Assembly (NCBI RefSeq): GCF_007993655.1
Contig: NZ_CP029077.1
Location: 366,744-430,743 of the forward strand
Reading direction: 5' to 3'
DNA length: 64,000 nt
From: Candidatus Deianiraea vastatrix
GTDB lineage: Bacteria; Pseudomonadota; Alphaproteobacteria; Rickettsiales; Deianiraeaceae
The translations under genes and the position numbers were made by a program. The notes below the pieces were generated by a model. That model did no database searches. It saw nothing but the letters and a program-made list of their open reading frames with translations, and was not told the origin of the DNA. This document shows, piece after piece, positions 23,210-48,496 of the stretch. The number at the start of each line of letters is the position of its first letter. The first letter of the stretch is position 1.

Positions 23210-24706
23210 CTAGTTGACCAAATTAATTGCTTTTTCAGTTGCGCGAATTGAAGCCATTATTTGATCACTTGAAACGCCAGATGTTCGAATTGAATTTTCC
23301 CAGTGGATTACGGTTTCAACTAAGGCGTTTGTTTGCCCGCCTTTTGGGATGCTGACCTCGAAATCTTGTAATTGCGGGATTTTGAAACCAGCTTTTTGCG
23401 ATATTAAATGCAGTGCGTTCATGAAAGCGTCATATCCTCCGTTTCCGCTTGAATTTGCGCAAAATTCTTGATTAATATAGCGAATTTTAATGTTTGCAAC
23501 CGGTAAAAGTGTTGTTGACGATGTTATAATACACTCCAAAACTTCAAAATTTTTGACAATATCTGTGCCAAGAATATCTGCTATTAAAAATGGTAAGTCG
23601 TCTTGTGTTATTGACTTTTTTTCATCACCCATTGAAATAATATGCGATAAAACCTGTGATTTTTGTTCATCTGTTAGAGTTATGCCAAGCTGACTTAGGT
23701 TTATTTCAAGACTTCCCTTGCCAGACATTTTTCCAAGTGAATACTGAGTATTTCGTGCAAATCTTTTCGAATTTAGCTTTGAAATGTATAAATCGCCCTT
23801 GTTATCGCCATCTGCGTGTATTCCAGCGGTTTGGGTAAATACATCTTTTCCAACAATTGGTGCGTTGTGTGCTAGTTTTTTCCCAGAAAACCTCTCAACA
23901 ATTGAGCTTATTGGGTATATATCGTGCTCAGATACACCTATGTCAATTCCAAGATGATCTTTTAAACATACGATAAATTCTGATAAATTTACATTACCAG
24001 CTCTTTCGCCAAGCCCATTTATTGTTCCATGGATGCGTGAAATTCCAGCTTTTGTGGCGTAAATTGCATTAGCCGTTCCAAAACCGTAATCGTTATGACA
24101 ATGAAAATCCAGATTGGAATTTGGAAATTTGTCTTTCATTTTTGAGACCATGTCGTAAGTTTGCCATGGGCTTAAAATGCCGAGCGTGTCGCATAAAATT
24201 AATGTTTTTACGCTATTTTTAACCAAGAATTCTGATATTTCCATGACATACCCTTCATCTTGAATCATTCCATTTGACCAATCTTCAAGATAAACGCTTG
24301 CAGAAATTCCGTTTTTACTTGCACAATTTAGCGTTTTTTCTATATCCGCAATGTGTTCTTTTATGGTTTTTTTAAGTTGAATTTCGCAATGACGACGAGA
24401 GCCTTTTGTAAGTAGGTTTATATTACGACACTCGGTTTGCATTAGCCAATTTATAGATTTATCATTATCGCAAAAAGATAATACTGAGATATTGTCGATA
24501 AAACCTGCATTTTTTGCCCATGATGATATTTTTGATATACTTTGTTTTTCTTTTTCACTAACCCTGCAACTTCCTATTTCAACCATGTCAAATTTCATTA
24601 CAGAAAGAAGGTTTTGTGCAATAATTAGCTTTTCATCTGGCGAAAAAGAGACATGATTGGTTTGTTCGCCGTCTCGTAGGGTTGTGTCAAATATTTTTAC
24701 TGGCAT
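23210..24706 (-). CDS. 2-isopropylmalate/citramalate synthase family enzyme
   Basis: DRE-TIM acyl-CoA carboxylating lyase that joins acetyl-CoA to a 2-oxo acid. At 498 residues it has the TIM barrel (F-D-T-T-L-R-D-G-E-Q at 6-15; metal site H-C-H-N-D; I-N-G-L-G-E-R-A-G-N) and a full C-terminal regulatory domain of the LeuA type. The segment T-Q-T-A-G-I-H-A-D-G-D-N-K resembles, from memory, the LeuA form of Bacteroidota more than alphaproteobacterial LeuA. The sequence alone does not settle whether the substrate is 2-oxoisovalerate or pyruvate. No other leucine or isoleucine gene is in the window, so its pathway is unclear. A 6-bp hairpin (23182-23202) follows the stop codon. Confidence 0.8.
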   Translation of the reverse strand: MPVKIFDTTLRDGEQTNHVSFSPDEKLIIAQNLLSVMKFDMVEIGSCRVSEKEKQSISKISSWAKNAGFIDNISVLSFCDNDKSINWLMQTECRNINLLTKGSRRHCEIQLKKTIKEHIADIEKTLNCASKNGISASVYLEDWSNGMIQDEGYVMEISEFLVKNSVKTLILCDTLGILSPWQTYDMVSKMKDKFPNSNLDFHCHNDYGFGTANAIYATKAGISRIHGTINGLGERAGNVNLSEFIVCLKDHLGIDIGVSEHDIYPISSIVERFSGKKLAHNAPIVGKDVFTQTAGIHADGDNKGDLYISKLNSKRFARNTQYSLGKMSGKGSLEINLSQLGITLTDEQKSQVLSHIISMGDEKKSITQDDLPFLIADILGTDIVKNFEVLECIITSSTTLLPVANIKIRYINQEFCANSSGNGGYDAFMNALHLISQKAGFKIPQLQDFEVSIPKGGQTNALVETVIHWENSIRTSGVSSDQIMASIRATEKAINLVN

Positions 24707-44312: not shown

Positions 44313-45065
44313 TTATATCGTGCATTTAGACGTAAGTAATTGTGATATATTGTTGATATATGTTTCATATTTATCAATATTCATTCCGTCAGCATCAATT
44401 ATTACAACTTTTGAGTCTTTGTGGATTTTTTGCCTTAACTCATCAGGAAATTTGCCGTCTGAAACTATAATATACGGTTTATTTTGAATACTTTCCAATA
44501 CTTTTGGTAAAATTGAGCCATTATGAAAAATATACCCATCAATACTGACAATTTTTGAAAGACGAGTGCCAAAATTATGAGATGTTAGCACGTGGCAGCT
44601 TAAATTTTCTTTATTTTTAATATTTTTTACACCATTTATAATCTTTCTTGCTTGATTAATCTCATTTTTTTCCAAAAAAATCGATATTTCGCTAAGTATT
44701 TGTTCATAAATTTGACACGCAACATCACTGGAGAGCCAAAAATGCTTATCTTTACTGCAAAATTCGTCTTTTAAAATGCTGCAATCGGCAAGATTAATGA
44801 CCTTGTTTTTAAGTTTTAGTTGTTTTAATGATTCAAAGTGAGATATTGAAAAAGTCAAATCTGCGCTGCTAATTTTGCGAATTTCATTTGGCTTTAGGTA
44901 AATTCCATCGTGTGCATTTTTGCTGTAGACCTTGATATATTCAAATTTATTTGGCGACATCTGGGATATTGCCGATATAATAAACGGATGATCCGCTGCA
45001 ATTTTTGGCTTTGCAAATGATGTATTTATAAACAAAATTACAAAAATACAGGCAAATTTTAGCAT
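44313..45065 (-). CDS. Periplasmic metal-binding protein, ZnuA-like
   Basis: Solute-binding protein of the cluster A-I metal ABC transporters, likely for zinc or manganese. I use M at 45065, which starts a good signal peptide (basic start, then F-A-C-I-F-V-I-L-F, cleavage near S-F-A). Candidate metal ligands are H in A-D-H-P-F, H in N-A-H-D-G, H in T-S-H-N-F-G and D in D-A-D-G. D-K-H-F-W-L-S near residues 108-114 mirrors the D-P-H-I-W-L-S of ZnuA. At about 250 residues it is shorter than usual and quite diverged. No permease or ATPase gene adjoins. It converges on priA with a 7-nt gap. Confidence 0.65.
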   Translation of the reverse strand: MLKFACIFVILFINTSFAKPKIAADHPFIISAISQMSPNKFEYIKVYSKNAHDGIYLKPNEIRKISSADLTFSISHFESLKQLKLKNKVINLADCSILKDEFCSKDKHFWLSSDVACQIYEQILSEISIFLEKNEINQARKIINGVKNIKNKENLSCHVLTSHNFGTRLSKIVSIDGYIFHNGSILPKVLESIQNKPYIIVSDGKFPDELRQKIHKDSKVVIIDADGMNIDKYETYINNISQLLTSKCTI

Positions 45066-45106
45066 AAAATACAAGCTTCCTAAACCTCATTAAAAAAGAT
45101 AAAGAA

Positions 45107-46134: not shown

Positions 46135-47970
46135 TTATCCAGCTATAATTACACCGCCACCCAAGTCGCGAATCTTTGGCCTTTCCCCAGACATCACTTG
46201 TGTTTCTACATATTCAAATTTCTTCTTTTTGTGATTTTTATAACATTTGTAACCACAATAAGTTGATAACATTAATGCAACTGCAGCACCGCCTGCCGCT
46301 GAACCAGCAATTATTGCTGTTGTATTATCCGTTTTATCATTGCTTGCACTCGCAGATGGATCCCATGTTTTTCTATACTCTGTTGCATCGGATAAAGTGT
46401 TGCTAAACTGTGTATTACTTGGTAGACCTACAATGGCGCCATTTTCATGTAATACCCTTAATGCTGTAATAACTTTTTTTATTTCAGCACCTGGCGTAAG
46501 TTCTGAGAAATGATTTTCTATAGGAAGATGAAGGCGTTGTATTTTTTCCTGATCAACTAGTGGCATTGTGTAGTTTATTGTTGAATCTCTTAGAAAGTTA
46601 TACGCCTTTAAGCATTCACTTTTTTTATTATCGTCTGTTATGTTATTAATTTGTGGAAGAACAACATTATCAAGATGGTACATTGTAACATCTTGTATAG
46701 CTGTAATATTTTTGTATGCATAACTCATTGTGCTAATATATCCAATTGATGCTTCGTCTGTGGTGTTATCTTTTTTACCAAGGGAAACAATAGATTTTGT
46801 TGAATCCGTGTTGTTCCCATTTTGAAACGAATGAGGAAGTCCACACAAATGATTATACTCATGTAATAAAAGGTCTATAGTAAAATAATTTTTTACATTG
46901 TTTATATTTGTTGTTGAGTCTTCTGTATACGTAATATTCTCTTGTGATCTGTCTGTAAATATAACCTTGTTGTAGAATATCCTGTTTGTATTTGGGTCAT
47001 ATATTCCACCTGCAAGATTTAGGCCAATACATTCATCTGCTTCTTTTTTGTCTTTTAAAACAACAACATTGGTTATGTGACTAACCTCTTTTGTATTACC
47101 TGTAATTTCCCTAATCTCATTTTGATTACGTTCTAGTGTATCTATGATGTATTGATCTTCCTTATTTTCTACATTTATTGTTGAGCAATTGGTCTGATTT
47201 TTGTCCACTTCTTGGAATTGAAATTTATTGACTCCGCAACCTGAAGTAATATTGCTAGCTTTTTGCATTTGTGGAATATCAAGTGAATCACTTTTTTTGC
47301 CTGTTACAAATTCTTCATATGAAATGCCACCATTTTGAAAGTAATCATGACGCATATCTGAAAAAGTGTCATCTGGTTTTGATATTTGACTTGGGTCGCA
47401 TATTTTTGTTGGATCTCTAACTTCCCCAATAGTTCTATTGTAGCTTGTATTACTTATATCTGTTGCCTCCATTAATCTTTGATAAACCGTTTCATTTCGC
47501 TTCATTGTAAAATTTAATCCATCATCGCAATTTAGCATTACATGTGTGTCATTCATTGTAAAATTACCATTTGTTATATTTCCTGAAATCTCTTGTAAAT
47601 TTCTTTTATAGTTATTGGATATTCTAAGTATTGCTTGTTTTTCACCATCTGTAATTTGTGCATTAGCCCCAAGAGTTTGTAAATTACAAATTATAAAAGC
47701 AGCAAATACAACCTGCCAAAGAGATGTTATATTTATACTTGGGTTAATTTTTAATTCTTGATCAAAGGCATTTTTTATAACTGTATATATTTCTTGTGTA
47801 AGACCAAATGATGTATAATTATTTTCAAGATTTCCATTTATAAAACCTTCTGCAATTTCTTTTGCATGCTCTTTTGACCATTTCCTCTCTTTCCATTCTT
47901 GCGATTTTCCTATTTTTTGATTTTGTTGCTGATTAAAAAATTGATTTGATAGCTTGAAATTGCGTTTCAT
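46135..47970 (-). CDS. Membrane-anchored metzincin-type metalloprotease candidate
   Basis: A 611-residue protein. The zinc motif H-E-Y-N-H-L-C-G-L-P-H (370-380) fits HExxHxxGxxH, and S-T-M-S-Y (413-417) supplies a Met-turn about 35 residues later, together defining the metzincin clan. The N-terminal ~83 residues are charged and glutamine-rich. A hydrophobic segment follows (about 85-100), ending in A-N-A-Q, a possible signal-peptidase site. The ectodomain has seven or so cysteines. A Gly/Ala-rich span (551-573) and a basic tail (K-N-H-K-K-K-K) close the protein. By eye I count 19 N-x-S/T triplets. I do not recognise the family beyond the clan; M10- or M43-like origin is possible. Convergent with xth, divergent from rnpB. 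Confidence 0.7.
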   Translation of the reverse strand: MKRNFKLSNQFFNQQQNQKIGKSQEWKERKWSKEHAKEIAEGFINGNLENNYTSFGLTQEIYTVIKNAFDQELKINPSINITSLWQVVFAAFIICNLQTLGANAQITDGEKQAILRISNNYKRNLQEISGNITNGNFTMNDTHVMLNCDDGLNFTMKRNETVYQRLMEATDISNTSYNRTIGEVRDPTKICDPSQISKPDDTFSDMRHDYFQNGGISYEEFVTGKKSDSLDIPQMQKASNITSGCGVNKFQFQEVDKNQTNCSTINVENKEDQYIIDTLERNQNEIREITGNTKEVSHITNVVVLKDKKEADECIGLNLAGGIYDPNTNRIFYNKVIFTDRSQENITYTEDSTTNINNVKNYFTIDLLLHEYNHLCGLPHSFQNGNNTDSTKSIVSLGKKDNTTDEASIGYISTMSYAYKNITAIQDVTMYHLDNVVLPQINNITDDNKKSECLKAYNFLRDSTINYTMPLVDQEKIQRLHLPIENHFSELTPGAEIKKVITALRVLHENGAIVGLPSNTQFSNTLSDATEYRKTWDPSASASNDKTDNTTAIIAGSAAGGAAVALMLSTYCGYKCYKNHKKKKFEYVETQVMSGERPKIRDLGGGVIIAG

Positions 47971-48057: not shown

Positions 48058-48412
48058 TCAGCACACTCGTCTTGCCGCTGGTGGAAACACTAGAGGAAAG
48101 TCCGAACCTCAAAAAGACAAAACGCTGGGGAAAGCCCAGGGAGATGTGAGAGCATTTTACGGAAAGTGCAACAGAAAGTGTACCGCTTGCGAAAGTAAGT
48201 AAGGGTGAAAAGGTGGTGTAAGAGACTACCGCAAATTCAGCAATGAATTTGGCATTGAAAACCCCGTTTGAGGCAAGCCCAAGTAGGACTGCAAACGCCC
48301 GTCTTTTGGCAGCAGTTGGGTTGGGTGCTATGACACGTAAGTAATTATGTGTCCAGATAAATGGCAAGACCTGCTTTGCAGGACAGAATTTGGCTTATAG
48401 GGTGTGCTTTAT
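48058..48412 (+). ncRNA. rnpB: RNase P RNA
   Basis: Catalytic RNA that trims the 5' ends of tRNA precursors. The universal block GAGGAAAGTCCG is at 48093-48104, ACAGAAA at 48171-48177 and the 3' TTGGCTTATAG at 48390-48400. The ends pair as helix P1 (AGCACAC at 48060-48066 with GTGTGCT at 48402-48408). The length of about 355 nt suits a type A RNA. A TATTAT at 48045-48050 is a plausible -10 box, but the -35 is not clear. The 526-nt stretch between the protease and the next gene holds only this RNA and two promoter regions. Exact ends are estimated from the P1 pairing. Confidence 0.93.
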
Positions 48413-48496
48413 AGTTCTTGTATATATTTTATATTTATAAAAAAATTCTTGATTTTTGTTTTTTGTGTTTAAAGATGTGTTAGATTTTATTCTAAG

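What the first reader, a model, noticed from the sequence alone, without database searches (positions are those of the whole stretch)
46135..47970. Large membrane-anchored metzincin with a buried signal segment and many N-x-S/T sites
Seen: H-E-x-x-H-x-x-G-x-x-H at 370-380, a Met-turn S-T-M-S-Y at 413-417, an 83-residue charged N-terminus before the first hydrophobic segment (85-100, then A-N-A), and a C-terminal span with a basic tail. About 19 N-x-S/T triplets were counted by eye, roughly twice what I would expect from a crude composition estimate. Known: metzincins are secreted zinc proteases. Inference: a two-span ectoprotease, possibly displayed toward a host; the sequon density and type-I-like end invite the idea of a host-derived or host-targeted protein.
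Basis: partly seen in the sequence, partly recalled or inferred. Interest (0 to 1): 0.72.

Follow-up and report, generated by a model that had tools for sequence, protein, structure and literature searches.

The report
Surface protease in a bacterial effector-like regulon
The gene encodes a divergent zinc protease with an unusually long export signal and a membrane anchor, and a near-identical promoter sits in front of it and of at least 13 other genes, mostly asparagine/glutamine-rich and without known relatives, which suggests a co-expressed set of host-interaction proteins in a small parasitic bacterium.

Summary
The 611-aa ORF has HEYNHLCGLPH at 370-380, STMSY at 413-417, an 84-residue N-region before a signal-like segment ending ANA-Q, and a C-terminal span with a basic tail. 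N-x-T sequons are in real excess (17 vs 5.3 by shuffling), but only in this protein; N-x-S is not in excess. The genome has no STT3 or GT41 glycosyltransferase, so the host-derived/glycosylated idea is unsupported.

A second metzincin in the same genome shares the active site and N-terminal module (with an in-frame TAA at codon 19). Two HELxH proteins share the same N-terminal module (profile-profile E 3.5e-6). All four genes lie behind one promoter/leader, TTGACA-N17-TATAAT-NNN-(A)AAATT. It occurs 14 times at <=2 mismatches here, each before a distinct ORF; the reversed control gives 0, and 21 related genomes give only three 3-mismatch hits. The other genes encode MORN-repeat, membrane and N/Q-rich proteins.

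Best reading: an exported, envelope-anchored metzincin in a lineage-specific, probably co-expressed set of host-interaction proteins. No fold was obtained (pLDDT 30-36). Catalysis, export and regulation are inferred.

The parts
46135..47970 (-). Metzincin-like protein, 611 aa, ATG start, TAA stop
   Evidence: Pfam Reprolysin_5 E 3.1e-4, below the curated cut-off; paralogue in the same genome
47976..48017 (-). Promoter/leader element TTGACA-N17-TATAAT-NNN-AAAATTATTT, 18 nt between the -10 hexamer and the ATG
47719..47970 (-). Residues 1-84: extended N-region, MK...K.SN..FNQQQN.KIGK motif, shared with three other proteins of the genome
47659..47718 (-). Residues 85-104: hydrophobic segment and AxA-like c-region (LGANA before Q105); signal peptide or signal anchor
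   Evidence: hydropathy; G.(N/K/G)A-(Q/E) ending in all four proteins
46831..46863 (-). Residues 370-380: zinc motif HEYNHLCGLPH
   Evidence: H, E, H, G, H, S, F, N conserved in the paralogue
46720..46734 (-). Residues 413-417: Met-turn STMSY
   Evidence: SIMSY in the paralogue
46258..46323 (-). Residues 550-571: C-terminal hydrophobic span
   Evidence: hydropathy; no other copy of this C-terminus in the genome
46138..46257 (-). Residues 572-611: basic C-terminal tail (KNHKKKK...)
   Evidence: unique in the genome

Best explanation
The gene encodes a divergent metzincin zinc protease, probably active. It is exported through the Sec pathway by an exceptionally long signal (about 104 residues, with an 84-residue cytoplasmic N-region that probably controls targeting or timing) and is held in the cell envelope by its C-terminal span, so that it cleaves proteins in the periplasm or at the bacterium-host contact. 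It belongs to a lineage-specific set of at least 14 genes driven by one near-identical, consensus-strength promoter with an extended -10 and a conserved A/T leader. The set includes a second metzincin, two HELxH proteins with the same N-terminal module, two MORN-repeat proteins, and N/Q-rich or membrane proteins. I read it as a co-expressed host-interaction set of a parasite, probably Candidatus Deianiraea, an ectoparasite of Paramecium. Shown: active-site motifs, shared N-terminal module, shared promoter element and its absence from 21 relatives, N/Q bias. Inferred: protease activity, export route, co-regulation, host target, organism name.
For: Zinc motif and Met-turn conserved in a 24%-identical paralogue. 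Pfam Reprolysin_5 weak match over 242-423, E 3.1e-4 and 1.1e-5 in a genome search. N-terminal module shared by metzincins and HELxH proteins, hhalign E 3.5e-6; a four-sequence profile re-finds these four genes, and its only other match (E 0.04) is inside a long open frame, not at an N-terminus. Promoter motif: 14 hits at <=3 mismatches, reversed control 0. Refined motif: 18 hits in this genome against three 3-mismatch hits in 21 relatives, controls 0. The same refined motif with an 18-nt spacer: 0 hits. The spacer was left free, which found 13 of the 14 accepted sites, yet T, R, T at spacer positions 13-15 are 14/14 and G at 16 is 11/14; conservation (mean 0.94 bits) is confined to the element, against 0.25-0.28 on either side. 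N+Q median 17.4% against 8.3% in 42 window ORFs, p 8e-7.
Against: The Pfam score is below the curated cut-off, and no PDB sequence match is significant (best E 0.33, matrix metalloproteinases). AlphaFold gave no usable fold. A perfect consensus promoter may simply be strong and constitutive. Two of the 14 genes, and one weaker member, carry in-frame stops, so part of the set may be decaying. A C-terminal span normally anchors a protein in the inner membrane, which does not fit simple display outside the outer membrane.
Confidence: 0.6

Rival explanations
1. The shared element is just the strongest form of the housekeeping sigma-70 promoter. The 14 genes are highly and constitutively expressed and are not under a common regulator.
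For: Full consensus -35, extended -10 and -10 hexamers in nearly every site. No operator was identified.
Against: Every site with <=2 mismatches precedes an ORF without a confident housekeeping match in Pfam. The A-rich/TRTG spacer and the downstream AAATT are conserved beyond what strength requires. The motif does not occur elsewhere in the 64-kb window, which holds ribosomal protein L2 and RNA polymerase alpha genes.
Confidence: 0.3
2. The protein is an uncleaved two-span inner-membrane protease (N-in, C-in, periplasmic catalytic domain) that acts on the bacterium's own envelope and has no host role.
For: The hydrophobic segment lies about 80 residues from the start; the tail after the second span is basic.
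Against: AxA-like cleavage residues follow the first segment in all four proteins with the module, and the other three end without a comparable C-terminal span (sequences). The gene is lineage-specific and shares its promoter with MORN and N/Q-rich proteins, unlike an envelope housekeeping protease.
Confidence: 0.25
3. The gene came from a eukaryote (for instance the host), which would explain the sequons and type-I-like end.
For: N-x-T excess of 17 against 5.3, unique to this protein; type-I-like C-terminus.
Against: The metzincin paralogue with the same N-module has no excess. Promoter, leader and N-module are shared with other genes of the genome. GC and GC3 are ordinary. No STT3 or GT41.
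Confidence: 0.05

Closest known systems
Metzincin zinc proteases: M12B Reprolysin_5 (PF13688), M12A astacins, M10 serralysins/matrixins
   Same: HExxHxxGxxH followed by S-x-M-S-Y; weak profile match to Reprolysin_5, paralogue weakly to Astacin and Reprolysin_4, pair profile weakly to MMP-8/13.
   Different: All scores below curated or usual significance; 84-residue N-region before the signal segment; C-terminal span; no RTX or other secretion repeats seen; no homologue outside this genome at usable significance.
Long signal sequences with an extended N-domain (ESPR) of autotransporters and two-partner secretion proteins (PMC2805444)
   Same: A conserved N-terminal extension in front of an ordinary h- and c-region, shared by proteins with different passengers.
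   Different: About 84 residues instead of about 25; different sequence motif; no autotransporter barrel or two-partner layout in this protein.
Co-regulated effector sets of host-associated bacteria (general knowledge, not tested here)
   Same: Lineage-specific, scattered single genes behind one promoter motif, including repeat proteins and proteases.
   Different: The motif here is a complete extended -10 consensus promoter with no recognised operator, no regulator was identified, and the organism is probably extracellular.

Membership tests
Metzincin clan (MA(M)) | HExxHxxGxxH/D zinc motif | tested here: met
   370-380; 0 of 100,000 shuffles; conserved in paralogue
Metzincin clan (MA(M)) | Met-turn downstream of the motif | tested here: met
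   STMSY at 413-417, SIMSY in paralogue
Metzincin clan (MA(M)) | Metzincin fold | tested here: inconclusive
   AlphaFold models of pLDDT 29.7 and 35.6, not interpretable
Metzincin clan (MA(M)) | Zinc-dependent proteolysis | not testable with these tools
   needs purified protein
Pfam Reprolysin_5 (PF13688) | Score over the curated gathering cut-off | tested here: not met
   21.4 bits against 27; 24.9 in the genome search
M10B serralysins | RTX repeats and C-terminal type I secretion signal | tested here: not met
   No RTX family in the Pfam scan; the C-terminus is a span with a basic tail
Autotransporter/TPS proteins with ESPR | Extended N-region plus barrel or TPS domain | tested here: not met
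   Extension present, but no barrel or TPS domain in Pfam
N-glycosylated ectoprotein | A transferase in this genome that could glycosylate the sequons | tested here: not met
   PF02516 and PF13844 absent from the genome; host enzymes not testable

The most novel reading that the evidence does not exclude
A Rickettsiales-type ectoparasite of a ciliate uses a dedicated, lineage-specific regulon of at least 14 host-interaction proteins. Proteases of two unrelated kinds in it were fitted with a new roughly 100-residue export/targeting module, and one of them evolved dense N-x-T sites that matter at the host interface.
Probability: 0.25. Interest if true: 0.8.

Novelty: new variant of a known kind. 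Interest (0 to 1): 0.55.

Why it matters
It gives a sequence handle, one promoter motif, on the candidate host-interaction repertoire of a small parasite that otherwise has few recognisable effectors. It also points to a new long N-terminal export module shared by unrelated proteases. Both can be tested with transcript mapping and reporter fusions.

Tried and rejected
AlphaFold of the full protein and of the catalytic region with a two-row alignment: pLDDT 30 and 36, so no fold search was made. PDB sequence searches: nothing significant. Relatives of the protein in genome contigs, viral contigs, plasmids, phages, 53 relatives and 385 genomes of the class: none convincing; three weak generic hits, E 2e-4 to 8e-3. 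N-glycosylation by the bacterium, STT3 or GT41: rejected. Reading TAA as glutamine, as ciliates do, was considered for the paralogue and rejected as unneeded: another gene of the set has an in-frame TGA, and simple decay explains all cases. One promoter search used a wrong 18-nt spacer by my slip; its zero result serves as a control. Absence of a Shine-Dalgarno site is not special: 1 of 43 window ORFs has one. The original description of Deianiraea is not in the held library; no held paper links Deianiraea with metalloproteases.

Full report
What is there. The window is bases 366,744-430,743 of a single 1,205,153-base contig. The finding is ORF 46135-47970 on the minus strand, 611 aa. It lies among housekeeping genes: priA, a ZnuA-like gene and an endonuclease/exonuclease-family gene on one side, and on the other the RNase P RNA gene on the opposite strand at 48059-48413, followed by an NADH/Mrp antiporter subunit.

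Organism. The relatives in its family have 0.7-1.3 Mb genomes. The genome has a LeuA-type gene at 23210-24706, which would be unusual for host-bound Rickettsiales but fits the amino-acid-rich Candidatus Deianiraea vastatrix, an extracellular ectoparasite of Paramecium (described in PMC10847448 and PMC11253213). The name is an inference. PMC11253213 reports two-partner type V and type II secretion in Deianiraea.

Protease. HExxHxxGxxH plus S-x-M-S-Y, with a weak Reprolysin_5 match below its cut-off, marks a divergent metzincin. The strongest support is a paralogue at 318,892 to about 320,970 with HEFFHSLGFSH and SIMSY, 24% identical overall. In it the H, E, H, G, H, S, F and N of the active-site stretch and a TKS motif after it are kept. 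The paralogue has an in-frame TAA at codon 19, so it is either a recent pseudogene or starts further down. No fold could be obtained, and no relative was found outside this genome.

N-terminal module. The first 22 residues (MKRNFKLSNQFFNQQQNQKIGK) match the paralogue's MKNQTKFSNNSFNQQQNK*IGK. Two further proteins, of 363 aa (start near 482,940, minus) and 395 aa (start near 282,232, minus), have HELKH and HELIH motifs instead of the metzincin motif, but the same layout: MK/MQ, SN, N, a hydrophilic stretch of about 80 residues, a hydrophobic segment, then G-V-x-A-E/Q. Profile-profile comparison of the two pairs gives E 3.5e-6. The two were preselected by a weak profile hit (E 0.34) and by the promoter, so this E-value supports the link but is not wholly independent. 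A four-row profile re-finds only these four at strong scores; one further match, E 0.04, lies inside a long open frame and is not N-terminal. The module looks like a very long signal sequence, comparable in logic to the extended signal sequences of autotransporters (PMC2805444), but longer and of different sequence.

Promoter set. Upstream of these four genes lies TTGACA-N17-TATAAT-NNN-AAAATT with the ATG 18-30 nt after the -10. A genome scan with the spacer left free and up to three mismatches gave 14 hits, and 0 for the reversed pattern; 13 of them precede an ORF directly and one lies inside a dprA-like gene and is taken as chance. A refined motif gave 18 hits here, 14 with at most two mismatches and four with three. 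In 21 relatives it gave only three 3-mismatch hits, and all controls were 0. In the spacer, T, R, T at positions 13-15 are invariant and G at 16 is 11 of 14; 13 of the 14 sites were found without using these positions. The ORFs behind the 14 sites are the four proteins above, two MORN-repeat proteins, and eight others, mostly N/Q-rich or with membrane segments, without confident Pfam matches. Their N+Q content is twice the background (17.4% against 8.3%, p 8e-7). In-frame stops occur in the metzincin paralogue, in an N/Q-rich repeat gene (TGA at codon 150, the frame continuing to about 510 codons), and in a 3-mismatch member (two TAA). The 3-mismatch sites at 103264, 317125, 917685 and 1097249 are doubtful members.

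Sequons. The N-x-T excess is real and specific, while the other window ORFs are depleted (13 against 26.7). It is not shared by the paralogue, and no bacterial N-glycosylation enzyme was found. I have no explanation that I can support; a structural role of N-x-T turns and adaptation to a host environment both remain open.

Mechanism. Most likely the promoter yields strong, short-leader transcripts; the protein is exported by Sec through the long signal, cut after A104 or retained as an anchor, held by the C-terminal span, and hydrolyses proteins in the periplasm or at the host contact. Motifs, module and promoter element are shown; everything else is inferred.

Novelty. A metzincin as such is a known kind. 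The roughly 100-residue N-module shared by two kinds of protease, and the lineage-specific promoter family, are what is new here. The main weakness is that neither transcription nor protein function was observed.

Noticed in passing
L003:4893-6974 (G000:C1:318892-320973): Second metzincin with the same promoter and N-module carries an in-frame TAA at codon 19, while the following roughly 670 codons are open.
   Followed up: partly
L027:4991-5437 and the frame downstream (G000:C1 near 453,949, minus strand): Q-rich gene behind the promoter element stops at TGA (codon 150), but the frame continues for about 360 codons with YDENGK-type repeats.
   Followed up: partly
L058 from about 1814 (G000:C1 near 103,264, plus strand): Weak (3-mismatch) promoter site before a reading frame of about 285 codons with two internal TAA codons; probably a decayed member.
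   Followed up: partly
L025:1631-3772 and L029:4523-5698: Two MORN-repeat proteins (7 and 6 repeats) behind the promoter element; eukaryote-like repeat proteins, candidate effectors.
   Followed up: partly
L070:1-1950 (G000:C1 near 957,231): Very large N-rich open frame (about 1595 codons) without an obvious family; gave a weak N-module profile match that is not N-terminal.
   Followed up: no
window 44313-45074 (-): ZnuA-like periplasmic zinc-binding protein (below the Pfam cut-off) two genes from the metzincin; proximity may be chance.
   Followed up: no
window, 27 other ORFs of at least 250 aa: N-x-T triplets are depleted to about half of expectation in the other window proteins (13 against 26.7).
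   Followed up: no
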